Assembly: GCA_026014665.1 (NCBI GenBank)
Contig: JAOZHX010000034.1
Span: 186,001-250,000 of the forward strand
Length of the DNA: 64,000 nt
Source of the DNA: Candidatus Bathyarchaeota archaeon
GTDB taxonomy: Archaea > Thermoproteota > Bathyarchaeia > Bathyarchaeales > Bathycorpusculaceae
Direction: 5' to 3'
Part shown: piece after piece, positions 39,117-52,559 of the stretch
How the letters are laid out: every line of letters starts with the position of its first letter
Position numbering within the stretch: the stretch's first letter is position 1
The notes under the pieces: model-generated
What the model was told of the DNA's origin: nothing
What the model saw: only the letters and a program-made list of their open reading frames with translations
Databases searched by the model: none
Program-made: the position numbers and the translations under genes

Positions 39117-39128
39117 GGTTGAATAATC

Positions 39129-40478
39129 ATGAGTAAAATCAAAGTGTTGCTCCTTGTGCTCGTCTTAATTTTTTCAAGTGCAGTGGTTCTTCCTGTTGAT
39201 GCTGGCTCTAGAACAATTGTTGTTCCAGATGATTACCTGACTATATCTTCAGCCATTGAAAATGCTTCGGCTGGAGACACCATTTTTGTGAGGAAAGGAA
39301 CCTACCAAGAACAAAGCTTAGAAATCAACAAATCAATATCACTATTCGCCGAAGATTCCCGCCAAACAATCCTAAACCTTAACCCACCGCTTGTCAAAAC
39401 CGAGTACCTGCGAAATTGGCTTTGGATTCCCGCTTCAGCCATCAACATCAACGCAAACGATGTCACACTGCAGGGTTTCATGATAAACTTGCCAGACGAT
39501 CGCTATGGCATCGGCAGCGGAGTGTACATCATAGGTGACAGAATAGCCCTGATAGATAATACGATTGCTAACCGCAGTGTCTATCTACGAGGCAACATGC
39601 AGAACATCACAGGAAACCTGTTGCCAAGCGCCCTCGAAGTTATAGGCTCGCATCAAATCATCGCAAATAATGCAATAGGGGGAAACCTGAAAATACAGGG
39701 CTCTTTCAACCAAATATTTGCCAACAACATAACCAACAGTTACTATTTCAGCGGAATCCACCTTAACGGCTCCAACAATGTTATTATAAAAAACTTTTTT
39801 TCAGAAATAACCATGGAGGATTCTAATTCAAATATTATCGGCGATAACGTCTTTGCACGTTTGGTCCTTGAGAATTTCGGAAGAGGTTGCTCACACAACA
39901 TCATTACAAAGAATAGTGTGGCAGGTAACGGCGGAATCAATGACGGCATACAGGTTTTGTCTGGTTCAAACAACACCGTCAGCGTAAACAACATTCGCGA
40001 CTGCGAATACGGCTTGCGTGTAGGCAGCGAGGCTACGCAAAATTTTGTGTACCTTAACAATTTCTTTAACAACAGCGAACAACACATTTTTTGTTATTCA
40101 AACTACACCGAAAACCAATTCGATAACGGCATCAAAGGCAACTACTATGACTCTTACCATGGTAATGATGGAAACTGGGATGGAATTGGCGATTCTCCGT
40201 ATACAATCCAAGAAATCCATTGGGACGAGGAACTGCAAAGAGAAGTAACTGTCGTTTATTTCCAAGATAATCTTCCGCTTATGGCTCCCTTTGACATTGA
40301 TGGCGTTAGCATTCAACTTCCAGATTGGGCGACTGCGTCATTGAATTCTTTACCCGAGACCCAAACATCGGAGGCTTCCCCACTAAGCTTAGTTACAATA
40401 ACATCAGCTTCAGCCGTTTTTTCGGCTGCCGGCCTTTTAGTTTATTTTAAGAAGTACAAAAAGAGGGCAGTTCCATGA
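39129..40478 (+). CDS. Exported right-handed beta-helix protein 3 of 4
   Basis: A 449-residue paralog that starts differently: after the signal peptide it begins with TIVVPDDYLTISSAIENASAGDTIFVRKGTY, the pectin-lyase-like NosD opening, instead of the IYIKSDG module of the others. Beta-helix turns (NNVIIKNFFSEI, NNTVSVNNIRDCEYGLRV), the block GNYYDSYHGNDGNWDGIGD with SPY, a membrane helix and KKYKKRAVP tail follow. It starts 12 bp after gene 2 and overlaps gene 4 by 4 bp. No catalytic residues of pectate lyases can be recognised. Confidence 0.75.
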   Translation: MSKIKVLLLVLVLIFSSAVVLPVDAGSRTIVVPDDYLTISSAIENASAGDTIFVRKGTYQEQSLEINKSISLFAEDSRQTILNLNPPLVKTEYLRNWLWIPASAININANDVTLQGFMINLPDDRYGIGSGVYIIGDRIALIDNTIANRSVYLRGNMQNITGNLLPSALEVIGSHQIIANNAIGGNLKIQGSFNQIFANNITNSYYFSGIHLNGSNNVIIKNFFSEITMEDSNSNIIGDNVFARLVLENFGRGCSHNIITKNSVAGNGGINDGIQVLSGSNNTVSVNNIRDCEYGLRVGSEATQNFVYLNNFFNNSEQHIFCYSNYTENQFDNGIKGNYYDSYHGNDGNWDGIGDSPYTIQEIHWDEELQREVTVVYFQDNLPLMAPFDIDGVSIQLPDWATASLNSLPETQTSEASPLSLVTITSASAVFSAAGLLVYFKKYKKRAVP

Positions 40479-41749
40479 GAAAGAAATCATCGGCATCTTC
40501 AATCGCGGCGTTGTTGTTATTGATTTTGATTTTAGTTGGTGCCCTCTTATTTGCCACTTTGGTTAGTGCAAATTTCACACCCCTTCCAGAATTGCCAACG
40601 CCGATTTACATAAAAAGTGACGGAAGCATTGATCCATCATCAGCACCTATAAAGCAGGTCGGAAGCACCTACACGTTCACTAATGATATCAACAATACAA
40701 TAGAGGTTCAGCGCTCAAATGTAGTGCTTGATGGCAACGGCTACACTCTTACAAAACCCTCAGTTGACACCCACCTCATGGTGCCCATCGGCTGGCTTCC
40801 TGGGGTTCACGTCGCTGGCGTAAGTGTTGTGTCAATCACCAACATAGCGTTTGAGGGCTGCATCACCGGAATAACAGTTGAGAACTCAACCAACATAACA
40901 ATTATCCAGAACACCTTTAGGGAAACCCTGTGCGGCATAGTTGTAAGGAACGCTTCATATGTGAACATCGTTAGTAACGACATAGCATTGATGAATCAGT
41001 CCTTTGCCACCGGAATCCAGTTCTTGCCCGGCAGTCCTAAAGAAAGTGTTCCTCGAAACATAAAGATTGAGGGAAACAACATCGTTGGAACCAGTCAGGA
41101 AGTTCCAGCTTTTGCGCCTCAGCCTGAACAATATGGCATTTGGGGTGGGATCAGAGAGTCGGAAATTTGCAAAAACACCTTAACTGACATCAAAGGAATC
41201 GCCCTCTACAATCTTGGAGTCAACAACCGGGTAGTCGGTAACAATTTCCAAGACAACTATGAAGGCATTCTCATGAACACAAACCAAGAAGCCTGGTTTA
41301 ACAACTTCATCTATGGCAACAACTTTAACCATAACAGCAAAAACGCGGTTGTGGCATTCATCAGAAACCCGCCCGTTAACTTCTGGTATAATGGCACAGT
41401 GGGCAACTACTGGAGCGATTACGAGGGTGCTGATAAAGACGGCGATGGCGTAGGCGATTCACCCTACATACTAAAAATCACTTACACAGATTATGAGCAA
41501 TATAGGAATGTAACCGTGGAAGTAGGCAGAGATCGCTACCCTTCCATGTCACCGTTTGATATCCCTGCCATCAACGTGAAACTACCCCACCCAGCAACTG
41601 CATCGTCTCCCGCTCCAACAGAACCTCAAACAACAGAGCCTCTCCCAACAGCACTGGTCATAGCAGCCCTTTCAGCGTTACTAACTATAGTTAGTGTAAG
41701 CTTGATAGTCTATCTTACAAAGTTCAAGAAATCAACCATGAAAGGATAA
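40475..41749 (+). CDS. Exported right-handed beta-helix protein 4 of 4
   Basis: A 424-residue paralog with signal peptide (IAALLLLILILVGALLF), the module TPIYIKSDGSIDPSSAPIKQ, beta-helix turns (NITIIQNTFRETLCGIVV, NRVVGNNFQDNYEGILM), GNYWSDYEGADKDGDGVGD with SPY, a Pro/Thr linker, a membrane helix (ALVIAALSALLTIVSVSLIVYL) and KFKKSTMKG tail. Closest to gene 2 in the opening module. Last gene of the operon; the start overlaps the stop of gene 3 (ATGA). Confidence 0.75.
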   Translation: MRKKSSASSIAALLLLILILVGALLFATLVSANFTPLPELPTPIYIKSDGSIDPSSAPIKQVGSTYTFTNDINNTIEVQRSNVVLDGNGYTLTKPSVDTHLMVPIGWLPGVHVAGVSVVSITNIAFEGCITGITVENSTNITIIQNTFRETLCGIVVRNASYVNIVSNDIALMNQSFATGIQFLPGSPKESVPRNIKIEGNNIVGTSQEVPAFAPQPEQYGIWGGIRESEICKNTLTDIKGIALYNLGVNNRVVGNNFQDNYEGILMNTNQEAWFNNFIYGNNFNHNSKNAVVAFIRNPPVNFWYNGTVGNYWSDYEGADKDGDGVGDSPYILKITYTDYEQYRNVTVEVGRDRYPSMSPFDIPAINVKLPHPATASSPAPTEPQTTEPLPTALVIAALSALLTIVSVSLIVYLTKFKKSTMKG

Positions 41750-41866
41750 AGGCACCACAATAAGTCTTTAATGTGAATACCAATCCAGTCCCTTCATTGT
41801 TCGCTTGGTTGCTTTAATTAACGGTTTTTTCTTCACTTTTCGATGTACCACCTTAGGCTCTTTCAG

Positions 41867-42034
41867 CATGCCTCCACACCCACACCCAGCAAAACTCAAC
41901 ATGCAACCATGTAGAGCATGTGGAGAGAAACACGGCTTTCACACCAAGGCAGACATTGGAAAGCGTTGCAAACCAAAAAAGCAAAGCGTTCCTAAAACAA
42001 CCATGTGGCAACCCTAAAACCTCCACACACATAA
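41867..42034 (-). repeat. Dispersed ~170-bp element, copy 1
   Basis: On the minus strand it begins GTGTGTGGAGGTTTTAGGG, passes GTTGCCACATGG, GTCTGCCTTGGTGTG and CTACATGGTTGCATGTTGAG and ends GTGTGGAGGCATG. The same order of blocks occurs at 47826-48000 and 52226-52398 (both plus strand). GTGTGGAGG lies at both ends as a direct repeat. Confidence 0.75.
41868..42017 (+). CDS. Small Cys/His-rich protein encoded within the dispersed element
   Basis: A 49-residue ORF: MPPHPHPAKLNMQPCRACGEKHGFHTKADIGKRCKPKKQ... with CRACG and a later Cys and His residues that could form a zinc site. The frame is open further upstream (to 41805) but that part is not shared with the other copies. Equivalent frames in copies 2 and 3 retain NMEPC and CGE-type remnants but carry stops after 15-31 codons. 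It may be a real gene whose duplicates have decayed, or a chance frame in an RNA or mobile repeat. Confidence 0.4.
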   Translation: MPPHPHPAKLNMQPCRACGEKHGFHTKADIGKRCKPKKQSVPKTTMWQP

Positions 42035-42207
42035 AGCTTACAATTCTCTAACAGTAGATGAGACGAAAACAGTTTTTTGGTTGCATTAACTAGTAATCTA
42101 AACGAGCCAGCAGAGCTCAAAGGACGTGGCTATCGACAATTTACAAACGGATATGTTTATATTGAAACAGACAATTTTACTGACTACGCAATCAGGGAAA
42201 GAGGACT

Positions 42208-42608: not shown

Positions 42609-42923
42609 TTAACGTTTAATCGGTTGTTGTGGTTGCTGACTCTTAATCTTCACTAACTGTTTTGCGATCTTTTGAATGAGCTTCTCTTTGGATTCCTTCT
42701 TCTCAACTGTAAGCATGCCAGTTTTAGCCCATGGCATCTTGGGATAATGTGCATCAACGTTTACTTCATATTTTAAAGCAAGCTTCTCAACTGCCTGCTC
42801 AATTTCAAAGATCTTCGGAGATTGAACCGCCTGATTTTTGGGTATCCGACGCCCCTCTTTACGGGTTTTAGCTTGGTCGAAGTAGATTGGCCAAATTATC
42901 GCTTTATCGTTGAGTTTTCGCAT
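42609..42923 (-). CDS. srp19: Signal recognition particle protein SRP19
   Basis: A 104-residue SRP19 that binds the tips of helices 6 and 8 of 7S RNA and prepares it for SRP54. IIWPIYFDQAKTRKEGRRIPKNQAV is the diagnostic N-terminal block and HYPKMPWAKTGML the second. The C terminus is Gln/Lys rich (KIKSQQPQQPIKR). It is the last gene of the GluRS-isoprenoid block, 10 bp after GluRS. Identity firm. Confidence 0.93.
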   Translation of the reverse strand: MRKLNDKAIIWPIYFDQAKTRKEGRRIPKNQAVQSPKIFEIEQAVEKLALKYEVNVDAHYPKMPWAKTGMLTVEKKESKEKLIQKIAKQLVKIKSQQPQQPIKR

Positions 42924-42933
42924 CTTTCTCCAC

Positions 42934-44703
42934 CTATTTTTGAGCGTAATAAGCTACCAGTTTTCCGCCGACTTCATCCACGCGGACAAAACCATAACGC
43001 TCAAACTGTATGATTGTGTTAGGCTTTAACTTTTTGCAAGCTAACTCTGCAAACCCCTCAGTAACCGATGCATCTTGCAAGATAACCTGCGTTGGGTACT
43101 CTGCACCCTTAGGAATCCACTGGATAAGCTGGGCTTTGAGTTTTCTAGCCTCTTCATAGGATTCACTAGCATAGGTACCCGTTACAGCCTTGTCGCTTAC
43201 TTTTTGAATTTGGACATTAAAGAGTTCCATGAGTCGGATGGTCTGTTGTGGTTGCATAGTTTTTGCATCTGCACGTGAAATCCAAAAGCTTACAATCTCT
43301 CCTTCACCGCTTGGTTTAACTGTAAATTCTCGGTAGCCTCGTTCGGGATGCTCCGGATGCAGGAGCAGTTTAGCCTGAAAAACTTTCGGCACCTTCAACA
43401 CCGTTAACTCTACAGGTTGCGCTACGAAGAAGTAGCGATTGCTCGTTGCATCCAGAATTTTGCGGTTGTAAGCGTTAAGAGTTTCCCAACTGAGCGTGAC
43501 ATCGTTTGATTTTATACCAACGTCGATGATGACTTTTTTGATGGCTTCTGGAGTGATACCTCGTTTTCTGAGGGCTTGGAAGGTGCCCAGCCGTGGATCA
43601 TCGAAATCGGCAAAATCTCCTTCTTTAATTCCGGCGACGATTTTTGATTTACTCAACGATGCACCTGTGATTTTAAGTCTACCATAGTGGATGGCTTCTG
43701 GGTATTCCCAGCCAAAGTGTTGGTACATGTATTTCTGTCGAACCATGTTTGTGTAGTGTTCTTTGCCTCGTATGATGTGGGTAATGCCCAGTAAATGGTC
43801 ATCTAATCCTGCCGCCAAGTTGTAGAGTGGCCAAACAACGTATTTGCTGCCTACACGAGGATGGGGATACTTTTTGGTATCGATTATGCGCAGGGCTGGC
43901 CAGTCGCGGACAGCAGGATTCGGGTGCTCCAAATCAGTTTTCACTCGTACGACTGCTTGCCCTTCTTGATAGCCGCCGTTCAGCATCCGATTCCAGCGTT
44001 CCAATTGTTCAGAGGTGGGCAGGTTGCGGCATGGGCACGGTTGTTTTGCCAGGATTTTTGATCGAAACTCGTCGGGTATGCAAGTGCAGACATAGGCGTT
44101 TCCGCTAGCGATGAGCTTCTCTGTGTACTCATAGTATATTGGAAGTCGGTCGCTTTGGATGTATTCCTCGTCGGCCTTGCAACCTAGCCACTTGAGGTCT
44201 GCTCTGATGCTGTCATAGAATTTTAGGCTGGGTTTTTTCACTTTTGGGTCGGTGTCTTCAAAGCGGAGGATAAACTTGCCGTTGTATATGCGTGCGTACT
44301 CGTGGCTTAAGAGTATGGCTCTAGCTGAGCCGAGATGTAGGACACAGTCTGGGTTGGGAGAAAAGCGGGTGACGATTTGCTTGTATTTATCAGCGTTTGG
44401 AAGTGGCGGGAGCTTTTTGTCCTCAGCTTCATGTTTTTTCAGGGTTTGAGGCCAGTTTTTCTCCACGATTGCCTTCTGCTCTTCAAGTGACAGACTGTTA
44501 ACTTCATTGACGACTGAGTTAATTACAACTGAAAGCTCCTTCACGCGGGTGCGCAACTCTGCTTTTTCGCCGAGAATCTTACCGACCAAAGCGCCTGCCT
44601 GCGCTTTGCCATCATGCGAAACCGCGTTTAAAAGGGCTGCTTTTCTGATTAACTCTTTAAGCTCTGCATTTTGTTCTAGTGCCAAACTCTCTACGCTCGC
44701 CAA
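42934..44703 (-). CDS. gltX: Glutamyl-tRNA synthetase, archaeal type
   Basis: A 589-residue class I synthetase of the archaeal/eukaryotic GlxRS group. The HIGH-like box is in RFSPNPDCVLHLGSAR (about 113-128), the KMSKS-like box is LSKSKIV, and the C-terminal half is the beta-barrel anticodon domain seen in archaeal GluRS and GlnRS rather than the bacterial helical cage. Residues 1-90 are the usual helical extension. It is nondiscriminating in many archaea (also makes Glu-tRNA-Gln), which cannot be judged here. It begins 3 bp after the prenyl synthase gene, as in the common archaeal idsA-gltX arrangement. Confidence 0.94.
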   Translation of the reverse strand: MASVESLALEQNAELKELIRKAALLNAVSHDGKAQAGALVGKILGEKAELRTRVKELSVVINSVVNEVNSLSLEEQKAIVEKNWPQTLKKHEAEDKKLPPLPNADKYKQIVTRFSPNPDCVLHLGSARAILLSHEYARIYNGKFILRFEDTDPKVKKPSLKFYDSIRADLKWLGCKADEEYIQSDRLPIYYEYTEKLIASGNAYVCTCIPDEFRSKILAKQPCPCRNLPTSEQLERWNRMLNGGYQEGQAVVRVKTDLEHPNPAVRDWPALRIIDTKKYPHPRVGSKYVVWPLYNLAAGLDDHLLGITHIIRGKEHYTNMVRQKYMYQHFGWEYPEAIHYGRLKITGASLSKSKIVAGIKEGDFADFDDPRLGTFQALRKRGITPEAIKKVIIDVGIKSNDVTLSWETLNAYNRKILDATSNRYFFVAQPVELTVLKVPKVFQAKLLLHPEHPERGYREFTVKPSGEGEIVSFWISRADAKTMQPQQTIRLMELFNVQIQKVSDKAVTGTYASESYEEARKLKAQLIQWIPKGAEYPTQVILQDASVTEGFAELACKKLKPNTIIQFERYGFVRVDEVGGKLVAYYAQK

Positions 44704-44706
44704 ACC

Positions 44707-45777
44707 TTACTTATTGCGCTTTATCAAGAATTCGGCGAACGCTTTTAATTTTTCCTTAGCCAGCGGCGTCGGCAAAAGTTTTTCCGCTTCAGCCCAGCTT
44801 TCCATAACCATCCGTTCTGCGGTTTCCTTGACGTGTTGCATGGCACCATACTTTTGCATGAGTGCGATAGCTTCGTCACGTAGTTGCTGGTCAGAAGTGT
44901 GCATGTTGAGGATTTCAATTAGCCGTTTCCTATCGGCGTTGCTGGCTTTTTTGATTGTGTAAATAACCATCAGGGACCGTTTCCCTTCAGTAATATCCTG
45001 CCCAACGCCGCCTTTTTTCTTGGCAAACTCTTCTCCTGTCAAGTCCAACAGGTCGTCTTGCATTTGGAAGGCAACACCGATGCTTTCAGCAAAACGCCCG
45101 AGTTTTTCCACAAGCTTGGGGTCAGCGCCTGAAAGAACCGCAGCCATCTTCGCAGCCATACGCGCAAGTGTCCCTGTCTTGTAGGCGCACATCTGAAGGT
45201 AATCCTGCTCGTCTAAATCATCGGCGTTGGCTATGCCTCGATGCCAAGCTATATCCATGGCTTGTCCCATGCTCAGGTTAATCATTTCTTGCACGTAAAC
45301 CTCGTAGATATCCCGCTGCATCTCTGCTGGAAGCTGATTTTTTTGAGTCATGAGGGACAGGAGCGGCAGGTAGTACATGGCGTTTCCAGCGTTAACAGCA
45401 ATGTCCATTTGGAAAATCTTGTAGGTACATGGTTTGCCACGGCGAAGTTCAGAGGAATCTTCGATGTCGTCGATGACTAGGGTGCCGTTGTGGATAACTT
45501 CGGGGATGATGGATAGGTCAAGGCAGTAATCATCCTTTTTGCCGAGGGCTTCACATATAAGTAGGAAGAGGGCTGGTCGCCAACGTTTGCCTCCGCGGTC
45601 CAGCATGTCCCAGATGGGTTCAGCAATTGCCTTGTTGAGTGGTTCAAGGGTGTAGCTGTACATTGGTGGGTTAACTTTGAAGAGCACCGAGTTTTCGGTG
45701 AACCTGCGGGGAATGTATTTTTCGATTGCTTTGTCGATTAAGGGTGCTTTTTCTTCCAAGAACTTCTCAACATCCAT
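44707..45777 (-). CDS. idsA: Geranylgeranyl-type polyprenyl diphosphate synthase
   Basis: A 356-residue trans-prenyltransferase that adds IPP to allylic diphosphates to build the C20/C25 chains of archaeal lipids. The first aspartate-rich motif is DDIED (103-107) followed by SSELRRGKP; the second is QMQDDLLDLTG; GGKRWRPAL marks IPP binding. The residues before the first motif decide chain length, but I cannot predict it reliably. It starts 2 bp after IPP isomerase in a tight operon. Identity firm, product length inferred. Confidence 0.93.
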   Translation of the reverse strand: MDVEKFLEEKAPLIDKAIEKYIPRRFTENSVLFKVNPPMYSYTLEPLNKAIAEPIWDMLDRGGKRWRPALFLLICEALGKKDDYCLDLSIIPEVIHNGTLVIDDIEDSSELRRGKPCTYKIFQMDIAVNAGNAMYYLPLLSLMTQKNQLPAEMQRDIYEVYVQEMINLSMGQAMDIAWHRGIANADDLDEQDYLQMCAYKTGTLARMAAKMAAVLSGADPKLVEKLGRFAESIGVAFQMQDDLLDLTGEEFAKKKGGVGQDITEGKRSLMVIYTIKKASNADRKRLIEILNMHTSDQQLRDEAIALMQKYGAMQHVKETAERMVMESWAEAEKLLPTPLAKEKLKAFAEFLIKRNK

Positions 45778-45779
45778 GG

Positions 45780-46883
45780 TTAGTAGGCTCCTCTTTTGGC
45801 GTATTTTTGCAGGTTAAAGCCTCGGGCTTGCAGCCACTGAGCGGTTTTACCCGTAATCACAACAGGCGTTTGTGGTAGGTCGGATAGTTTTTGAGCGCCT
45901 ACCAAGAACAGGGCGTTTCTTAATTCCTCGATTAAACATCGAAGTTTTTCCTCTGTTTCTTTTACGCCTAGGACTGCGGTTTCAAGGATGGGCTGGGAGA
46001 TGCTTGCTAAGCTGGCGTTGATTGCTATGGCTTTTGCTATATCGGTGCCGCTTCGTATGCCCCCGCTGGCAATCAAGGGCAATTTCACGGTTTGAGCGAC
46101 TTCGATTAAGCTGACTGCGGTTGGTATGCCCCAGTCCCAGAATGCCTCGCCTAAAAAATTGTGGACAACGTTTGTTTTCTTGTCTGAACGGTGATATTCG
46201 ACTGCGGCAAAACTTGTGCCTCCCACCCCGCTGATGTCGATGGCTTTGACGCCTGCAGCTTCAAGTGCTTTAGCGTCTTCGGCGGAGATTCCTGCGCCTG
46301 TTTCTTTGACGATTACTGGCACGTCGATTGCATCTACGACTTCGGCGATTTTGCCCAAGACGCCTTGGAAGTTAGTTTGTCCTTCTGGTTGCACGGCTTC
46401 CTGTAGAGCGTTAAGGTGGATTGCAACGGCGTCAGCGTCAATCATCTCCACGATGTGCCTTACCTCTTTTACGCCGTAACCGTGAACAAGCTGTACACCG
46501 CCGACGTTGGCGATTAAGAAGGCGTTTGGCGCTTTTTCGCGTGCCACCCTGTAGGTTTTTTCAAGGCTTGATTTTTCTACGGCTGCTCTCTGGCTTCCCA
46601 CTCCCATACCTAATCCTAGCTGTTCCACGGCTTGGGCTATGGCTGAGTTGATCGGTATGGCTTCTTCGGTACCGCCCGTCATGGCGCCAACGATGATGGG
46701 TGCTTTGAATTTTTTGCCTAAGAAGGTAGTTGAAAGGTCGATTGTTTGCCTGTTGATTTCAGGGAGGGCGCGGTGGATGAGTTGGATGTCTTCAAAGCCG
46801 GCTGTGGCTTTTTTGGCTTGAGCTTTTTTTTCTAGACAGATTTTTATGTGGTCAATTTTTCGTTTTTCTGTTTTTTCTGCCAT
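45780..46883 (-). CDS. fni: Type 2 isopentenyl-diphosphate delta-isomerase
   Basis: A 367-residue FMN- and NAD(P)H-dependent enzyme that interconverts IPP and DMAPP. FMN and substrate motifs include APIIVGAMTGGT, GMGVGSQRAA, IANVGGVQL, HLNALQEAVQPEGQTNF, IVKETGAGIS and ASGGIRSGTDIAKA. It follows the isopentenyl phosphate kinase stop by 1 bp and supplies DMAPP to the prenyl synthase next to it. Identity firm. Confidence 0.95.
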   Translation of the reverse strand: MAEKTEKRKIDHIKICLEKKAQAKKATAGFEDIQLIHRALPEINRQTIDLSTTFLGKKFKAPIIVGAMTGGTEEAIPINSAIAQAVEQLGLGMGVGSQRAAVEKSSLEKTYRVAREKAPNAFLIANVGGVQLVHGYGVKEVRHIVEMIDADAVAIHLNALQEAVQPEGQTNFQGVLGKIAEVVDAIDVPVIVKETGAGISAEDAKALEAAGVKAIDISGVGGTSFAAVEYHRSDKKTNVVHNFLGEAFWDWGIPTAVSLIEVAQTVKLPLIASGGIRSGTDIAKAIAINASLASISQPILETAVLGVKETEEKLRCLIEELRNALFLVGAQKLSDLPQTPVVITGKTAQWLQARGFNLQKYAKRGAY

Positions 46884-46884
46884 G

Positions 46885-47688
46885 TTACGCCTTCTCGATT
46901 TCTGTGCCTAGGATGCTTTGGTCTGTTAATGCTCTGTAGATGGATAAGCCTTTTGTGGCTCCTGTGATTGTGACGTGGGTTCCCTGTTCGATGGCTGGGA
47001 TAAGCTCGGCGATTTTGCTTGCCATGCCGCCGGTGACGTCGGTGCCCGTTGCTTTGCCGAGTTTTGGTTGAATCTCTTTGAGTTCCTTTAGGGTTAGGTG
47101 TTTGTAGGGTTTGGCGTTGGGGTTGGTTTTGGGGTCGCTGTCAAATAGTCCGTCCGTGTCGGTGCCTATGACGATTTTTTTAGCGTTGTATTTTATGGCT
47201 AAGTAGGCAACGAGTTGGTCGCCGGACAGGATTGTGAAACCTAATTTTTCGTCTAAAACTGCGTCGCCGTACATGACGGGTGTGAATACCAGTTTTGCCA
47301 TGGATTTAAAGACTGTTTCATCGAAGTACTTGACTTTGCCGTTCTCAGTAACCATGCAGGATGAAGGTGCCACGCTCACCGCAGGGATTTCATGCCAAAT
47401 AAGTGCATCCATAACTAGGCCGTTGAGCACGGTCATGACGTGGTGGGTTTCGGCAAAGCCTATCTTTTGGGCAGGGTCTTCTTTGTAGCCGTCTTTTATG
47501 CCGTATTTAGCGGCGGTCGGGTGACCAAAGCTGCCGCCTCCGTGGACGATGATGAGGTTATCGAGGTCTGCCCTCTTGATTTCTTCTGCTAAGCGGTTTA
47601 TGACTTCGGTTTTTGCGGCTAATTCGCCTGTTTTATCTGTTATGGCTGAACCGCCAAGTTTAAGGATGACTGGTCTTTCAGTATTCAT
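46885..47688 (-). CDS. ipk: Isopentenyl phosphate kinase
   Basis: A 267-residue amino-acid-kinase-fold enzyme that phosphorylates isopentenyl phosphate to IPP with ATP, the last phosphorylation of the archaeal mevalonate pathways. VILKLGGSAITDK is the N-terminal nucleotide loop; HGGGSFGHPTAAKYG contains the catalytic His (H56); SGDQLVAYLAIKY, GTDTDGLFDSDP and GTDVTGGMASKI complete the site. First gene of the IPK-IDI-IdsA-GluRS-SRP19 block. A 513-bp gap containing repeat copy 2 separates it from the dehydratase genes. Confidence 0.94.
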   Translation of the reverse strand: MNTERPVILKLGGSAITDKTGELAAKTEVINRLAEEIKRADLDNLIIVHGGGSFGHPTAAKYGIKDGYKEDPAQKIGFAETHHVMTVLNGLVMDALIWHEIPAVSVAPSSCMVTENGKVKYFDETVFKSMAKLVFTPVMYGDAVLDEKLGFTILSGDQLVAYLAIKYNAKKIVIGTDTDGLFDSDPKTNPNAKPYKHLTLKELKEIQPKLGKATGTDVTGGMASKIAELIPAIEQGTHVTITGATKGLSIYRALTDQSILGTEIEKA

Positions 47689-47825
47689 CGTAATCGAAAC
47701 CTACCTATGACTTATCAAGTTCTGCTAATTTAATATTACAGTTGTTTGCCCAAAGCTTGGTGTGGCAATCGCGGATTTAATAGGTGAATTCTCGGTTTTT
47801 TTTACGTATGATTGTTTTTCGTCTT

Positions 47826-48000
47826 TATGTGAGTGTGGCCGTTTTTAGTGTGCCACAAGATGGTTTGTGTGGGCGGTTGTTTTTTGTGGTTGCAACGTTT
47901 CTTTTTGTCTGTTTCGGTGTGGCATAAGATAATCACACCACACGTTCAACATGGCTCCATGTTGGTTGGGTATTCTTGTGGTTGTGGAAGCATGTTGAGT
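47826..48000 (+). repeat. Dispersed ~170-bp element, copy 2
   Basis: Shares with copy 3 TATG...GTGGC.GTTTT, GTGCCACA, the exact block TTGTCTGTTTCGGTGTGG, then ACATGGCTCCAT and GGAAGCATGTTGA. CAACATGGCTCCATGTTG (47946-47963 region) is a near-perfect palindrome. The reverse-strand frame MLPQPQEYPTNMEPC is stopped by TGA at the next codon. It lies in the gap between the dehydratase and IPK blocks. Confidence 0.75.
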
Positions 48001-48201
48001 CCACATAAATCCTCACAAGCTATCGCTTGATTAAGCATTGTAAGCAAGCATCCAAGTGCTCCAAATCCTTAGCGGACGAAAAAATTTGGCGGACAGTTAA
48101 AGGGCAGAAAGGGTTCAATAAAGCGGTAGTAGTAAAAAGGGAGCAAACAAGCATCTGCAGACGATGCATCAATTATTAGTTCATAAACACATTAGAAAAA
48201 A
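48001..48201. other. Remaining spacer between the two isoprenoid blocks
   Basis: No gene seen. Together with 47689-47825 it surrounds repeat copy 2. Minus-strand TATA-like sequence near 47737 (TTAATATTA on the plus strand at about 47731) may drive the IPK block. Confidence 0.3.
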
Positions 48202-48588
48202 TTACAGTAGAGAAATTGTGTCATCTTCCACTTTTACTTTATCGCCTGTCTTGATTTTGGTAATATCGATTTTGTCTACGAAGGGAATTTCGCTGATGAT
48301 GGCGCCCACAGCGACGATGGTTTCGGTTTCTTTGTTTATCATGGCTGCAGGGGCAGTTTGGTTCTTTTTCATGCGGTACAGTGTGTAACTGCCCACGGTG
48401 CTTCCTTTGCCCTGCGGAAACACCAAAATCTTGCCCTTGATGCTTTGCCCTTGCAACTCATGCCCCTTTTCGAGCACGACACCCGTGTTTGGGTCCACGC
48501 CGCCGTAGAAGCTAATGGGCATCGACGTGACGAGTGCTTCGCCTTCCGCCTTGCCTTTGTAGATTATTCTTCCTTTTAGTTGTTCCAT
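48202..48588 (-). CDS. Phosphomevalonate dehydratase small subunit (AcnX swivel, DUF126)
   Basis: A 128-residue AcnX swivelling domain (RIIYKGKAEGEALVTSMPISFYGGVDPNTG, GKILVFPQGKGSTVGSYTLYRM). With the large subunit it dehydrates (R)-5-phosphomevalonate to trans-anhydromevalonate 5-phosphate in the modified mevalonate pathway described from Aeropyrum. The conserved GSTVGSYTLY loop holds the Ser that meets the cluster-bound substrate in aconitase relatives. It overlaps the large-subunit gene by 13 bp, implying equal, coupled synthesis. Confidence 0.9.
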   Translation of the reverse strand: MEQLKGRIIYKGKAEGEALVTSMPISFYGGVDPNTGVVLEKGHELQGQSIKGKILVFPQGKGSTVGSYTLYRMKKNQTAPAAMINKETETIVAVGAIISEIPFVDKIDITKIKTGDKVKVEDDTISLL

Positions 48589-49784
48589 TTTCCAGTCACC
48601 GCCGCATCAACACATTCTTTCATACTTCCCATCTTAGTTTTCATAAGGTTCTGCCGTGAGTAGAAGCAGCCCTTAGCCGACGTGGTCGCAAGCGCCTTAA
48701 ACCTGCCCTTGAGGGGTGCCACCGCCATACAGGTGTCACAGGCGAATTTGCCGCCTGCCTCCTCGATGATGGCCGTGTAGCCACGCTTGTCCGAGAGTTG
48801 CTTTGCGGTTCGGGATGTGGCAACCCAAAGCTCCGTGCCCCTTGCGACCTTTTTGCCCTTGATTAGGTCGGCGATTTGCTGGATTTCTTTGATGCTGCAG
48901 TGGGGGCACCCGACGCAGACAAAGTCTATGTCGCTTACTTGGTCGTTGATGTTGTCATAAGCGTTTTTGATGTCGGCTGACTCTATTGTCACGGTTTGGG
49001 CGGGCTGTTTTTGTGCTTCAGCGCCAGGCGTTACGCCCTTAACGTAGAAGAGCGGTTTAGCCCCGTAAGTCACCACTGACGCGCAGAACGATTTGAGGCT
49101 ATCGAGGTCGGCTGTTTTAATACCTGTGATGTATGGGATCTTGTTTTCCGCCTTCTTGCCCACCGCATAGCCCAGTGCACCCCAATCAGAAAGCTTGGAA
49201 AGTTCTGTGTTGACTTGAACATGCACGTCTGGCACTCGGTTCTCGTCAAGATGCAACCCATAATTGGGCGTCTTGCCCACAAAAGCCGCTGCCAAGGCTG
49301 ACGGTCCGCCTTCACGGTTGGTCCGTGCGCCCAAGACCGAGTTGGCAAAGGTTACCGCTGAGCTTTCGGACCATGCGACGTGTTCGCCATAGAGGGGTAG
49401 GTTGCCGATGAGGTAGGGTGTGCAGGTGCAGCTGACAAGGATGCCCATGCGTTGGAAAGCGTCGATGACAAGGTTTTGTTTTTCTGCAAATTCGGGGCTT
49501 ATGCCGAGTTGCTGCCAGTTTTCCAAGTCCATGCCCGCAGGGTTAAGGGTTGTTAGCACTTTGACCTTGCCGTCAGCCGCCAACGAATCCAGAAATTCTA
49601 GGCCAGCATCGCCAAGGTTGTGGTAGCTTACGCCTGCCACTTGCACGCTTCCAACGTCGATTAAGCTTTTTGCACCGAAAATCTCGCCCAGCGCAACCAG
49701 TATCTCCATGCTTTTGCGCACAGCATAGCCTTCTTTGCCATCCAGCATGGCTTGCTCTTGCTTGGTTAATTCCATACCTGTCAC
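48576..49784 (-). CDS. Phosphomevalonate dehydratase large subunit (AcnX, DUF521)
   Basis: A 402-residue aconitase-X catalytic subunit. Cys residues of the Fe-S site are visible in CTCTPYLIGN, CVGCPHCSI and CDTCMAVAPLKG; GVSYHNLGDAGLEFL, CTPY and SARTAKQLS-like blocks match the family. The neighbouring UbiD and mevalonate kinase genes support the phosphomevalonate substrate rather than cis-hydroxyproline. The GTG at 49784 overlaps the UbiD stop (GTGA); ATG 49775 (MELTKQEQ) agrees better with the usual family start and is a good alternative. Confidence 0.91.
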   Translation of the reverse strand: MTGMELTKQEQAMLDGKEGYAVRKSMEILVALGEIFGAKSLIDVGSVQVAGVSYHNLGDAGLEFLDSLAADGKVKVLTTLNPAGMDLENWQQLGISPEFAEKQNLVIDAFQRMGILVSCTCTPYLIGNLPLYGEHVAWSESSAVTFANSVLGARTNREGGPSALAAAFVGKTPNYGLHLDENRVPDVHVQVNTELSKLSDWGALGYAVGKKAENKIPYITGIKTADLDSLKSFCASVVTYGAKPLFYVKGVTPGAEAQKQPAQTVTIESADIKNAYDNINDQVSDIDFVCVGCPHCSIKEIQQIADLIKGKKVARGTELWVATSRTAKQLSDKRGYTAIIEEAGGKFACDTCMAVAPLKGRFKALATTSAKGCFYSRQNLMKTKMGSMKECVDAAVTGKWNN

Positions 49785-51091
49785 TTGTACTTGGTTAAGT
49801 CAACTTTCATGTAGTCTACTTTCTTAAAGCCCTTGCCCGTTGACACCAACGGTGCAGTCGCATCTAGGCCTGCTTTGGCTGTTGTTGCTTTCTTGCCTTC
49901 CGATAGGTCGCCGGATGGGTCAAGCGACGAACCGGGTTGATTCGAGAGAATAACGGCGTTCTTGTCAGCTTGGAACCTGGTTGCAATCGCCCATTCCACG
50001 TCATGCGGGTCATAGATGTTAATGTCCTCATCGACGATGACGCAGTGTTTGAGCGAACCGTGCCCTTTGAACGCGGCGGCTATGGCTTTCTTGCCGTCGT
50101 CAGCATTCTGTTTTCTGATTTGTACAACTGCATGCAGCCAACTGCAACCGCCGGGTGTAATATACACATCTTTGCAATCGCATACTTTGCTGACTTCAGC
50201 GAAGATGGTGGGTTCTTTGGGCATGCCCATGAGGAACTTGTGCTCGTTCTTGCCTGCTAGGATGGTTTGGTAAATGGGGTTTTGACGGTGGGTTATGCAG
50301 TTGATTTCAACAATCGGTTGCTGGCGTTCCCGGTCAACGATGCCTGTCAAATCAAGGAACGGGCCTTCTGACGCTTTTTCTTTGGTTATCCACCCTTCCA
50401 ACACAAACTCGCAGTCCGCAGGCACCTCAATATCCACGGTCTTGCACTTGACAAGGTCACTTTTCTCCAGGGCGTTAGCCATTCCCAGCTCATCAACACC
50501 CATCGGCAAGGTCGTGGCGGCAGCAAGCAACGTGGCAGTGGAGTTGCCAATGCAGAAGGCTATTTCGAGTTCTCCGCCCGCTTTCTTTAGCGCAGTGTCG
50601 GTGCCTCTGTTCTCGACTATGCGGGCGACAAAGTGATTTTTGTCCTTTAGCATGAGCCGGTGGAAGCACATGTTGCGGGCGCCGGATTCTGGGTCTTTGA
50701 TGATTGCGACGGCTGAAGCGATGTATTTGCCGCCGTCCCGCTCCGTGTAACGCATGATGGGCAGTTTGGTTAAGTCCACGTCTGCTTCAACGACTTCTTG
50801 GCAAGCGCCCTCCTCTACGACCTGGGGCGGAATTGGGTTTTGGATGGCGCTGAGCAGTTTTGGCAGCAGTTGCTCTTTGGTTATCCCCATGGAACGGCAA
50901 ATCCGCTCTTTGCTGGAAACCAACCCCGCCACCACAGGATAATTGGACTCTTTCACGTTCTCAAAGTAGACTGGGGCTTCTCCCAGCGCGTTTATGATGC
51001 CTGCCATCTCATACTCCGTGGAGACAGGCGTTCTGATTCTTGCAAGTTCACCGTTCTTGTCGAGCATTTCAATGAAAGTTCGCAAACCCAA
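49781..51091 (-). CDS. UbiD-family decarboxylase, probable anhydromevalonate phosphate decarboxylase
   Basis: A 436-residue UbiD-type enzyme that uses prenylated FMN. Recognised by RICRSMGITKEQLLPK, YTERDGGKYIASAV, FHRLMLKDKNHFVAR, EGPFLDLTG and the C-terminal NQPGSSLDPSG. In the archaeal pathway the homolog decarboxylates trans-anhydromevalonate 5-phosphate to isopentenyl phosphate. The position between mevalonate kinase and the two dehydratase subunits makes that role likely. The UbiX-type prenyltransferase needed for its cofactor is not in the window. Confidence 0.9.
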   Translation of the reverse strand: MGLRTFIEMLDKNGELARIRTPVSTEYEMAGIINALGEAPVYFENVKESNYPVVAGLVSSKERICRSMGITKEQLLPKLLSAIQNPIPPQVVEEGACQEVVEADVDLTKLPIMRYTERDGGKYIASAVAIIKDPESGARNMCFHRLMLKDKNHFVARIVENRGTDTALKKAGGELEIAFCIGNSTATLLAAATTLPMGVDELGMANALEKSDLVKCKTVDIEVPADCEFVLEGWITKEKASEGPFLDLTGIVDRERQQPIVEINCITHRQNPIYQTILAGKNEHKFLMGMPKEPTIFAEVSKVCDCKDVYITPGGCSWLHAVVQIRKQNADDGKKAIAAAFKGHGSLKHCVIVDEDINIYDPHDVEWAIATRFQADKNAVILSNQPGSSLDPSGDLSEGKKATTAKAGLDATAPLVSTGKGFKKVDYMKVDLTKYK

Positions 51092-51100
51092 AATTATTCC

Positions 51101-52042
51101 TCAGTATGTTACAACGCCGATTTTTGTGCTTAAGAACTCAAAGCCTGCAGTCTTAAATGCGCTTGCAACTTTGCCCTGCAAATCCTTGCCCGGCGTTAGT
51201 GCGACCATGCAGCCTCCGCCTCCGCCACCCGTAAGTTTCGCACCAAACGCACCCTGTTTTCGAGCCATATCCACGAGCAGGTCGAGTTCTTTGCTGGAAA
51301 CGCCGATTTCTTGGAGGAGGCGGTGGTTTTCGTTCATGAGGTCGCCGACTTTTTTTAGGTCGCCTGATTCAAGGGCTTTGCGTCCTGCGACTGCGAGGTT
51401 TTCGGCCTGCTTGAAGAGCGGGTCGTATTTTTTGGGGTTTGCTTTTTTGCGTTCGGCCACGCCCTCGACCATGGCTTTGGTGTTGGCAACTTTCCCCGTG
51501 CTGCCTATGACGATTTCGATGGGACGTTTAACATGGATTTTTTCTACGAAGTCTTGTCCGCCAGCGGGGTTCTTCTTAAACCACATCAAACCGCCATAAG
51601 TTGCCGCGGTATTGTCGATGCCGCTGGGGTTGCCAGCGTAAGCTTTTTCGCCCTCATAAGCTACTGCATTGATTTTCTCGTTTGAGAGGTTGAGGTTTAA
51701 TTCTTGGCTGATGGCTCGTGCGATGGCAACGCTGCTTGCGGCGGAAGCTCCAAGACCGCTAAAACCCGGAAGTGTGCCGCCTATCCAGATGTCAAGCGGT
51801 GTTTTGGGGTCTAAATCCATGGCTTTTAGCATGCGTTCGATGGATTCGACCTGTTGTAGCCGTTTTTCTTCGCTGTACCCCTTGGCAGTTTTGCGTTCGT
51901 CTTTGATGTTTAAACCTTTGATGCCTTTTTTGACCTCTGCATCAGTTGAGGAATCAATCGCGGATACGATGCCTGGCACCCCGTGGACCACGAAATGTTC
52001 CCCGAACAATATTACTTTCCCATACCCTGACCCTTTACCCAT
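51101..52042 (-). CDS. mvk: Mevalonate kinase
   Basis: A 313-residue GHMP kinase that makes 5-phosphomevalonate. GKVILFGEHFVVHGVPGIV is the N-terminal substrate block, PGFSGLGASAAS (91-102) is the GHMP phosphate loop, and GAKLTGGGGGGCMVAL is the C-terminal motif. It is the first gene of a four-gene unit (MVK, UbiD, AcnX large, AcnX small) with 9-bp or overlapping junctions. No phosphomevalonate kinase or diphosphomevalonate decarboxylase is present here. Identity firm. Confidence 0.95.
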   Translation of the reverse strand: MGKGSGYGKVILFGEHFVVHGVPGIVSAIDSSTDAEVKKGIKGLNIKDERKTAKGYSEEKRLQQVESIERMLKAMDLDPKTPLDIWIGGTLPGFSGLGASAASSVAIARAISQELNLNLSNEKINAVAYEGEKAYAGNPSGIDNTAATYGGLMWFKKNPAGGQDFVEKIHVKRPIEIVIGSTGKVANTKAMVEGVAERKKANPKKYDPLFKQAENLAVAGRKALESGDLKKVGDLMNENHRLLQEIGVSSKELDLLVDMARKQGAFGAKLTGGGGGGCMVALTPGKDLQGKVASAFKTAGFEFLSTKIGVVTY

Positions 52043-52225
52043 AAAGTTACACCTTGAATGGATGCTAATAGCACTAGACAGATAAAAAATATTCTTTGCT
52101 CAACCAATCGAACCTGTAGTGTCAGAACAGCGGATTTAGAAGAAACACTAAGACAACCTTGGTTAGCCTATGATATTATTGTAATGGGTTTGCAAGATCA
52201 GTTTTTGCGGCTGCTTCTTTTTTGT

Positions 52226-52398
52226 TATGCGGATGTGGCGGTTTTAGGGTTGCCACATGGCGGCTTATGGTTTTGGTTGCTTTGCGGGGTTAGGATGTTT
52301 TACGTTGTCTGTTTCGGTGTGGGAATGCGTCTTTCTCCACACATTCTACATGGCTCCATATTGAAAACGCTGCAATGTGAGTGTGGAGGCATGTTGAA
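52226..52398 (+). repeat. Dispersed ~170-bp element, copy 3
   Basis: Blocks in order: TATGCGGATGTGGCGGTTTT, AGGGTTGCCACATGG (identical to copy 1), TTGTCTGTTTCGGTGTGG (identical to copy 2), CTCCACACATTCTACATGG, CTCCATATTGA and GTGTGGAGGCATGTTGAA. The reverse-strand frame MPPHSHCSVFNMEPCRMCGE parallels copy 1 but ends after 31 codons. Confidence 0.75.
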
Positions 52399-52559
52399 GA
52401 AGCCTAAAGGTGTGCATTGGAAAAGGGATGGAAAAGCCGTTATGGAACAATCAAACGAGCAATAAAAAGACAAGGCTGTGTCTTGCCAAAATCTTTTATC
52501 ATCAACCCGCCATAAAGGTTCATGGGCAGATATACCCGAGAAGAAGGTGAGGCAGGGGC
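52399..52559. other. Spacer between repeat copy 3 and the next gene
   Basis: No gene seen. The whole 52043-52559 interval is otherwise occupied by repeat copy 3 and the presumed promoters of the divergent mevalonate kinase and 52560 genes. Confidence 0.3.

What the first reader, a model, noticed from the sequence alone, without database searches (positions are those of the whole stretch)
44707..52042. Complete phosphomevalonate-dehydratase (modified) mevalonate pathway in one cluster
Seen: mevalonate kinase, UbiD decarboxylase, AcnX large and small subunits, isopentenyl phosphate kinase, type 2 IPP isomerase and polyprenyl synthase lie on one strand with overlaps or 1-13 bp junctions inside two blocks. 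Known: this set performs mevalonate to prenyl diphosphate through trans-anhydromevalonate 5-phosphate, as first shown for Aeropyrum. Inference: the linkage of all seven genes, with GluRS and SRP19 behind them, independently supports the functional assignment of the UbiD and AcnX members.
Basis: partly seen in the sequence, partly recalled or inferred. Interest (0 to 1): 0.75.

Follow-up and report, generated by a model that had tools for sequence, protein, structure and literature searches.

The report
Archaeal isoprenoid operon without its cofactor-maker
A seven-gene cluster in a Bathyarchaeia genome encodes the known archaeal route from mevalonate to membrane-lipid precursors, but the enzyme that normally makes the special flavin needed by one of its steps was not found in this genome or in almost any of its close relatives.

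Summary
On the minus strand, 52042-44707, lie mevalonate kinase, UbiD, AcnX large, AcnX small, a 513-bp gap, isopentenyl phosphate kinase, type 2 IPP isomerase and a polyprenyl synthase, then GluRS and SRP19, in a Bathyarchaeia MAG. The assignment as the archaeal modified mevalonate pathway is well supported: one AcnX and one UbiD in the genome, an HMG-CoA reductase, no phosphomevalonate kinase or (di)phosphomevalonate decarboxylase found, and the named Fe-S and mevalonate-5-phosphate residues of the solved Thermococcus enzyme conserved. This pathway is already known to dominate in archaea. 'Complete' fails on one point: no UbiX, the known maker of the prenylated FMN that UbiD enzymes need, was found. 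The single UbiX-fold protein is AfpA, which lacks 6 of 7 UbiX residues checked. In the window's family 43 of 44 sampled UbiD-bearing genomes (90% or more complete) lack UbiX; in other orders of the class 15 of 17 have it. The order also holds two separate UbiD/AcnX lineages: the window's cluster, and one in which UbiD directly follows a gene for a protein with the PAC3/PAC4/LpdD fold, a fold that includes a prFMN chaperone. The cluster is ordinary; the missing cofactor maker is the real question.

The parts
51101..52042 (-). mevalonate kinase (313 aa)
   Evidence: TIGR00549 243.6 bits over cut-off 163; the other three GHMP genes found in the genome are of other kinds
49781..51091 (-). UbiD-family decarboxylase, inferred trans-anhydromevalonate 5-phosphate decarboxylase (436 aa, TTG start)
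   Evidence: PF01977/20695/20696 and TIGR00148; only UbiD found in genome; N140, R145, E/D pair in EGPFLD conserved in the rows printed
48576..49784 (-). AcnX large subunit, inferred phosphomevalonate dehydratase large subunit
   Evidence: PF04412 512.9 bits; C121/C293/C352 and MVA5P-contact residues conserved; only AcnX over cut-off in genome
48202..48588 (-). AcnX small (swivel) subunit, inferred phosphomevalonate dehydratase small subunit
   Evidence: PF01989, NF003046 over cut-off; matches 7cnr chain B E 2.7e-44 with GSTVGSY kept
47689..48201 (.). 513-bp intergenic gap that splits the cluster; carries one copy of a dispersed repeat; in related loci this site ranges from 22 to 3797 bp
46885..47688 (-). 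isopentenyl phosphate kinase (267 aa)
   Evidence: NF040647 246 bits over cut-off 120
45780..46883 (-). type 2 isopentenyl-diphosphate isomerase (367 aa)
   Evidence: TIGR02151 423.5 bits over cut-off 281
44707..45777 (-). short-chain polyprenyl (probably geranylgeranyl) diphosphate synthase (356 aa); chain length not assigned
   Evidence: PF00348 222.7 bits; no chain-length model reaches its cut-off
42934..44703 (-). glutamyl-tRNA synthetase, conserved downstream neighbour
   Evidence: NF003169 760 bits; conserved order in relatives
42609..42923 (-). SRP19, conserved downstream neighbour
   Evidence: PF01922
53298..56188 (+). divergent neighbours enolase, ribosomal S2, Memo-like protein
   Evidence: kept near MVK in several relatives

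Best explanation
The cluster encodes the lower half of the archaeal (Aeropyrum-type) modified mevalonate pathway. MVK makes mevalonate 5-phosphate. The two-subunit AcnX, a [4Fe-4S] dehydratase, makes trans-anhydromevalonate 5-phosphate. UbiD decarboxylates this to isopentenyl phosphate. IPK, IDI2 and the prenyl synthase then give IPP, DMAPP and polyprenyl diphosphates for ether lipids. Mevalonate comes from an HMG-CoA reductase encoded elsewhere in the genome. UbiD chemistry needs prenylated FMN, yet this genome and nearly all sampled members of its family show no UbiX, so the cofactor must come from an unrecognised source. Shown: gene content, order, conservation, ligand residues, and that searches found neither the rival enzymes nor UbiX. 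Inferred: the catalytic activities, the substrate of UbiD, and the cofactor gap.
For: Families and order. One AcnX over cut-off, one UbiD and one HMG-CoA reductase in the genome. The four GHMP genes found are MVK, shikimate kinase, a beta-RFAP synthase family protein and a pantoate-kinase-like protein; the MVD-like profile hits three of those same genes only. AcnX-L: all 13 cluster or substrate residues named in PMC8184944 for TkAcnX (G48, V49, S50, N53, N79, C110, E129, S130, S131, C283, C342, K361, Y365) are kept in the window and in 43 of 43 window-type sequences. UbiD: Asn/Arg and Glu...Asp network kept. Cluster order conserved. UbiX: the only PF02441 protein found is AfpA; 43 of 44 UbiD+ genomes sampled in the family lack UbiX.
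Against: No enzyme activity is shown for any of these proteins. No characterised anhydromevalonate phosphate decarboxylase sequence was available, so the UbiD substrate rests on context and on being the only UbiD found. At the usual UbiD metal-ligand histidine the window has N, and the window-type rows printed show N, H, D or E; the alignment there is uncertain. In the MVD-like search the shikimate kinase gene is marked as reaching that profile's cut-off (27 bits with its neighbours), though its own model gives 248 bits. PMC8329499 (abstract and passages seen) reports UbiX in Bathyarchaeia MAGs, which conflicts with a class-wide absence, though not with the family-level absence found here. The window genome is 94% complete, so its own lack alone proves little.
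Confidence: 0.9

Rival explanations
1. UbiX is not missing: AfpA, the one UbiX-fold flavoprotein found in the genome, is the flavin prenyltransferase of this lineage, supplied with reduced FMN by the overlapping FMN-reductase gene.
For: AfpA is the only PF02441 protein found in G000, and its genus mates mostly show one hit of the same size and score; its gene overlaps an FMN reductase gene by 4 bp (family); it keeps K129 and has Asp at E140.
Against: In 7 of 7 AfpA-type rows (5 of the 7 confirmed as AfpA by NCBIfam) S15, E49, R122, R139 and Y169 are not kept and E140 is D, so 1 of 7 is identical. Its closest solved relative is a dihydromethanopterin reductase (3wis, E 1.1e-14); the best UbiX-type chain (2ejb) scores E 0.0023. 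Family f9 has UbiD in 9 of 10 sampled genomes, and the 7 members show no PF02441 protein at all.
Confidence: 0.08
2. The UbiD runs without prenylated FMN, or prenylated FMN (or a precursor) is taken up from neighbours, so no maker gene is needed.
For: The same genus also shows no CoaBC-length flavoprotein (32 genomes), which would fit reliance on supplied cofactors. UbiD without UbiX also occurs in another family of the phylum (f37, 12 genomes with UbiD and none among the UbiX matches).
Against: The catalytic network that works with prenylated FMN is conserved, and the UbiD of three UbiX-bearing f6 genomes is 74-76% identical to the window's, so a different cofactor is unlikely. Uptake of this labile cofactor is unknown to me (recalled).
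Confidence: 0.25
3. A non-homologous flavin prenyltransferase, not yet recognised, replaces UbiX in this lineage.
For: UbiD and AcnX are kept while UbiX is missing in several families; detection works elsewhere (UbiX over cut-off in 274 of 397 genomes).
Against: No candidate gene was identified; the inserts beside UbiD or IPK that I read in four relatives do not look like one by eye.
Confidence: 0.45
4. AcnX and UbiD serve another pathway (hydroxyproline or aromatic acid metabolism) and isoprenoids are made by a different route.
For: AcnX-L also hits the hydroxyproline dehydratase model (314 bits), but far below its cut-off of 700.
Against: Substrate residues match the mevalonate 5-phosphate enzyme, small and large subunits are separate genes, no rival lower pathway was found, and the genes sit between MVK and IPK.
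Confidence: 0.03

Closest known systems
Modified mevalonate pathway of Aeropyrum pernix (Hayakawa et al. 2018; seen here only as cited in PMC9128505 and PMC8184944)
   Same: MVK, two-subunit AcnX dehydratase, UbiD decarboxylase, IPK, isomerase; no phosphomevalonate kinase or decarboxylase found
   Different: A. pernix has a UbiX partner (APE_RS05555, per PMC8184944); none was found here. Gene arrangement in A. pernix was not compared.
Thermococcus kodakarensis AcnX type IIb (PDB 7cnr/7cns, PMC8184944)
   Same: 50% identity in the large subunit, all named cluster and mevalonate 5-phosphate contacts kept, split subunits
   Different: Leu27 of the small subunit is Tyr here (my mapping, chain numbering shifted by one); T. 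kodakarensis has a UbiX partner (PMC8184944)
Second AcnX/UbiD lineage of Bathyarchaeia (type 2, here)
   Same: Same domains; the three Cys and most substrate residues kept; AcnX large and small subunits side by side
   Different: 39-42% identity to the window's AcnX-L; not in the MVK cluster; N53 is Thr in 8 of 9 non-window-type rows; UbiD directly follows a PAC4/LpdD-fold gene
LpdD, prFMNH2-binding chaperone of gallate decarboxylase (PMC10865409; PDB 8pzo)
   Same: The small protein upstream of type-2 UbiD has this fold (TM 0.61-0.64, E 2.4e-5)
   Different: Human proteasome assembly chaperones are closer (8qyj_M E 4e-8, PAC3 6jpt E 4.6e-6); no invariant histidine like those mutated in LpdD (H35, H61 by PDB titles); in the window genome it is about 62 kb from UbiD

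Membership tests
Archaeal (Aeropyrum-type) modified mevalonate pathway | MVK, AcnX large and small, UbiD, IPK, IDI2 all encoded | tested here: met
Archaeal (Aeropyrum-type) modified mevalonate pathway | no phosphomevalonate kinase, no (di)phosphomevalonate decarboxylase, no mevalonate 3-kinase | tested here: met
   GHMP_kinases_N finds 4 genes, none of these; MVD-like_N finds only three of the same genes; genome 94% complete
Archaeal (Aeropyrum-type) modified mevalonate pathway | HMG-CoA reductase to supply mevalonate | tested here: met
   one PF00368 gene, over the cut-off of TIGR00532, the 'degradative' model
Archaeal (Aeropyrum-type) modified mevalonate pathway | UbiX partner for the UbiD | tested here: not met
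   no UbiX in G000; 43 of 44 sampled UbiD+ family members lack it
Archaeal (Aeropyrum-type) modified mevalonate pathway | enzyme activities and intermediates | not testable with these tools
   needs biochemistry
Phosphomevalonate dehydratase (AcnX type IIb) | separate small and large subunits | tested here: met
   48202-48588 and 48576-49784
Phosphomevalonate dehydratase (AcnX type IIb) | three Cys ligands at sites A, 1 and 2 | tested here: met
   C121, C293, C352; 43 of 43 window-type rows and 9 of 9 others
Phosphomevalonate dehydratase (AcnX type IIb) | residues named as contacting mevalonate 5-phosphate in TkAcnX, directly or through a partner or water | tested here: met
   10 of 10 in the large subunit and Thr63 of the small one; the Leu27 position, not a contact, is Tyr
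Hydroxyproline dehydratase (AcnX type I) | single chain and NF051439 cut-off of 700 bits | tested here: not met
   two genes; 314 and 93 bits
Anhydromevalonate phosphate decarboxylase (UbiD family) | UbiD domains and Glu-Arg-Glu/Asp network | tested here: met
   PF20695/01977/20696; N140, R145, E..D in EGPFLD kept (mapping by spacing is mine)
Anhydromevalonate phosphate decarboxylase (UbiD family) | groups with characterised members in a tree | not tested
   no characterised sequence in the held data; nearest solved relatives are 6h6v and AnInD 7p9q
UbiX flavin prenyltransferase (claimed for AfpA) | NF004685 cut-off and residues S15, E49, R122, K129, R139, E140, Y169 (PaUbiX numbering; E49, E140, Y169 named in the passages seen of PMC6541611, the others recalled) | tested here: not met
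   26 bits against 188 for NF004685; 1 of 7 residues
PAC4/LpdD-type chaperone (protein upstream of type-2 UbiD) | PAC3/PAC4/LpdD fold | tested here: met
   AlphaFold model pLDDT 85; the 18 best Foldseek hits are proteasome assembly or LpdD entries; PF16093 (PAC4) below its cut-off in 3 of 3, best 30.4/31
PAC4/LpdD-type chaperone (protein upstream of type-2 UbiD) | binds reduced prFMN | not testable with these tools
   context only

The most novel reading that the evidence does not exclude
In this family of Bathyarchaeia the essential isoprenoid pathway depends on a prenylated-FMN decarboxylase whose cofactor is made by an unknown, non-UbiX flavin prenyltransferase, and a widespread PAC4/LpdD-fold protein, encoded directly before UbiD in 33 of 76 UbiD-bearing relatives sampled, delivers the cofactor to it.
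Probability: 0.3. Interest if true: 0.8.

Novelty: new variant of a known kind. Interest (0 to 1): 0.45.

Why it matters
The archaeal mevalonate pathway feeds the membrane lipids of these cells, so its UbiD step cannot be idle. UbiX (with its fungal form Pad1) is the only flavin prenyltransferase I know of; PMC10865409 calls it a single highly conserved enzyme found with UbiD. A family that keeps UbiD and AcnX but shows no UbiX either holds a second, unknown flavin prenyltransferase, lives on supplied cofactor, or runs UbiD differently. Each option would be new, and each can be tested directly. The PAC4/LpdD-fold gene beside UbiD in sister lineages offers a first candidate for cofactor handling in archaea.

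Tried and rejected
Hydroxyproline or aromatic-acid role for AcnX/UbiD: rejected on residues, gene split, scores and context. Hidden classical lower pathway: none found. AfpA as UbiX: rejected on residues and nearest solved relative. AfpA as phosphopantothenoylcysteine decarboxylase: considered; the catalytic His motif of CoaBC (recalled) is not in AfpA by eye; not pursued. UbiX lost because the window's UbiD type no longer needs it: not supported, since UbiX presence does not follow the UbiD type (6 UbiX+ among 45 genomes with UbiD next to AcnX, 5 among 33 with PAC4 next to UbiD). A UbiX replacement in inserts inside the cluster of relatives: I read the ORFs of three MVK-UbiD inserts (L027, L030, L036, of 7 gaps over 400 bp) and one AcnX-S-IPK insert (L028, of 9 over 400 bp); by eye they are a beta-CASP-like protein, PadR-like regulators, membrane proteins and the like. 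A horizontal origin of the window's AcnX type is suggested by 50% identity to Thermococcus against 39-42% to type 2, but the tree does not resolve it. The promoter/terminator scan of the gap gave nothing clearly above chance. Hayakawa 2018 (PMC6176645) is not held.

Counts: numbers per family were counted by hand from the printed rows. One search prints its matched genomes and 20 no-match genomes and leaves 45 no-match genomes unlisted; genomes absent from its matched rows were taken as without UbiX. The f1 total of 47 was checked against (44 with UbiD plus 3 without). In one search the line 'PAC4 present in 43 of 43' is wrong (a dictionary created entries while being read); the right figure is 68 minus 33 minus 3 = 32 of 43.
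Full report
What is there. The window lies in contig C2 (186001-250000) of a 2.37-Mb, 36-contig genome, 94% complete. Its AcnX-L is up to 91% identical to those of contigs labelled Candidatus Bathyarchaeota, so it is a Bathyarchaeia MAG (inference). On the minus strand, in transcription order, lie mevalonate kinase, UbiD, AcnX large, AcnX small, a 513-bp gap, isopentenyl phosphate kinase, type 2 IPP isomerase, a polyprenyl synthase, GluRS and SRP19.

Conservation. In 42 related loci the order is kept: UbiD and AcnX-L are within 60 bp in 39 of 40 loci that hold both, IPK-IDI2 in 29 of 29, IDI2-prenyl synthase in 29 of 29, GluRS-SRP19 in 28 of 28 (distances between tblastn matches). Two junctions are loose: MVK-UbiD (15-2723 bp, 30 loci) and AcnX-S-IPK (22-3797 bp, 31 loci). 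Enolase, ribosomal S2 and Memo lie beside MVK in several relatives.

Function of AcnX. The large subunit matches the solved Thermococcus AcnX type IIb at 379 bits and 50% identity, hydroxyproline dehydratases at 219-224 bits and 35%. PMC8184944 (one section and passages seen) names the Fe-S and mevalonate 5-phosphate ligands of that enzyme, and PMC10040528 (abstract and passages seen) reports from mutants that three cysteines hold the [4Fe-4S] cluster in Aeropyrum. All 13 large-subunit residues are conserved in the window and in 43 of 43 sequences of its type. Of the nine other rows, eight have Thr at N53 and one has Ala at S50. In the small subunit Thr63 and Val64 are kept, but Leu27 is Tyr (my mapping).

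Function of UbiD. All three UbiD domains are present. N140, R145 and the E...D pair in EGPFLD, which I map by spacing to the network described in PMC5818171 (abstract and passages seen), are kept in the 20 rows printed of 61 aligned; in L120 the letters between the pair differ (EERMVD). The position of the usual metal-ligand histidine is N, H, D or E in the window-type rows printed. The closest solved relatives are 6h6v (a decarboxylase by its title; HmfF is recalled) and AnInD. No characterised anhydromevalonate phosphate decarboxylase sequence was available.

Rest of the genome. One AcnX over cut-off; the weaker hit is an aconitase. One UbiD. One HMG-CoA reductase, over the cut-off of the 'degradative' model TIGR00532, class II by recall. 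Four GHMP genes: MVK, shikimate kinase, a beta-RFAP synthase family protein and a pantoate-kinase-like protein below its models' cut-offs. The MVD-like profile finds three of these only; the shikimate kinase gene just reaches its cut-off. So no phosphomevalonate kinase, phosphomevalonate decarboxylase, diphosphomevalonate decarboxylase or mevalonate 3-kinase was found.

The missing UbiX. The only PF02441 flavoprotein found is AfpA. Its nearest solved relative is a dihydromethanopterin reductase, and it shares 1 of 7 UbiX active-site residues. Among 81 relatives, 76 have UbiD, 72 have AcnX over cut-off and 11 have a UbiX-type protein, taken as PF02441 hits of 130 bits or more; 10 of these 11 also pass TIGR00421, G059 rests on PF02441 alone. 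So 65 of 76 UbiD-bearing relatives lack it. In a draw of 397 genomes of the phylum at 90% completeness or more, UbiX passes its cut-off in 274 and UbiD in 375. By hand count: window's family f1, UbiX 1 of 47 (G034), UbiD 44 of 47, so 43 of 44 UbiD+ without UbiX; other families of the order, 31 genomes, 10 of 29 UbiD+ with UbiX (8 of 9 in f6); other orders of the class, 22 genomes, 15 of 17 UbiD+ with UbiX; rest of the phylum, 297 genomes, UbiX in 246 and UbiD in 285. Incomplete assembly is an unlikely cause of 43 of 44. UbiD without UbiX is also seen in family f37 (12 genomes with UbiD, none among the UbiX matches). Against this, PMC8329499 (abstract and passages seen) reports UbiX in Bathyarchaeia MAGs; other orders of the class do have it, and AfpA may be named UbiX by some pipelines (inference).

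Two UbiD/AcnX lineages. In 76 UbiD-bearing relatives UbiD is directly followed by AcnX (43 genomes, the window's arrangement), or directly preceded by a gene for a protein of about 125 residues (31 genomes), or both (G045, G065); none shows neither. In the 19-row tree each AcnX lineage is one side of a branch (100/99, three ungrouped rows left aside), 39-42% identical across; their order relative to the Thermococcus row is unresolved. The small protein has the PAC3/PAC4/LpdD fold: AlphaFold pLDDT 85; best Foldseek hits include a chain of a human 20S proteasome assembly structure (8qyj_M, E 4e-8), PAC3 (6jpt, E 4.6e-6) and LpdD (8pzo, E 2.4e-5). LpdD is a prFMNH2-binding chaperone that helps activate UbiD (PMC10865409, abstract and passages seen). 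Its mutated histidines have no invariant counterpart here. The protein is also present, away from UbiD, in 32 of the 43 genomes of the first kind and in 3 genomes without UbiD, so its role need not be tied to UbiD. In the window genome it sits at C2:174221-174586, followed by an acetyltransferase and Sua5. In 6 of the 16 loci with the small protein read a CBS-domain gene follows UbiD, and in 4 of these Sua5 comes next; L038, with the window's cluster, shows small protein-acetyltransferase-CBS-Sua5 with no UbiD between. The simplest reading is that an older UbiD was lost from this spot and that the clustered type took over (inference).

What is known. PMC11052028 (section 3.1 and passages seen) states that the archaea-type pathway with AcnX and AMPD is dominant in Archaea, that mevalonate genes usually form clusters, and that phosphomevalonate decarboxylase also occurs in Bathyarchaeia; PMC5852551 (passages seen) noted UbiX/UbiD/AcoX neighbourhoods in 2018. 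The cluster itself is therefore a new example of a known thing. I did not find the UbiX gap or a PAC4/LpdD-fold partner of this UbiD described in the listings or the passages read; that library lacks most subscription papers, including Hayakawa 2018.

Verdict. Observation confirmed; pathway assignment right; 'complete' not shown, because no maker of the cofactor was found, family-wide. The cluster alone would score about 0.2; the UbiX gap and the UbiD neighbour raise it to 0.45.

Noticed in passing
window 47799-47998, 52202-52466, 41793-42036: A dispersed intergenic repeat, three copies around the cluster, 67-71% identical over 166-238 columns; similar stretches also in relatives L016, L019 and L046.
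   Followed up: partly
L150:8221-8586 (G000:C2, 11.4 kb before the window): PAC4/LpdD-fold small protein; its homologue is the direct upstream neighbour of UbiD in 33 of 76 UbiD-bearing relatives.
   Followed up: partly
genus g1 genomes: None of the 32 genomes of the genus shows a CoaBC-length (over 400 aa) PF02441 flavoprotein, so coenzyme A synthesis also seems to lack its usual enzyme.
   Followed up: no
L151:7490-8074 and 8071-8658: AfpA gene overlaps a gene for an FMN-reductase-family protein; likely an electron-transfer pair.
   Followed up: partly
L009:1453-2721: HMG-CoA reductase passes the 'degradative' NAD model TIGR00532 (480 bits) and not the NADPH model (67 bits).
   Followed up: no
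G045 (L156-L159) and G065:C36: Genomes that hold both UbiD arrangements; G065 C36 has PAC4-like (weak match, 69 bits), UbiD and AcnX in one line on one strand.
   Followed up: no
L047: A contig labelled Aenigmatarchaeota carries an AcnX 74% identical to the window's next to a distant IPK: transfer or misbinning.
   Followed up: no
L018 and L032: Two contigs of one Bathycorpusculum termitum MAG each carry UbiD-AcnX, possibly two strains in one bin.
   Followed up: no
phylum family f37 (for example G138, G168, G204): 12 genomes with UbiD and none among the UbiX matches, in another family of the phylum.
   Followed up: no
window 38500-41749: Tandem secreted-looking ORFs with repeats that resemble NosD-type beta-helix proteins by eye.
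   Followed up: no
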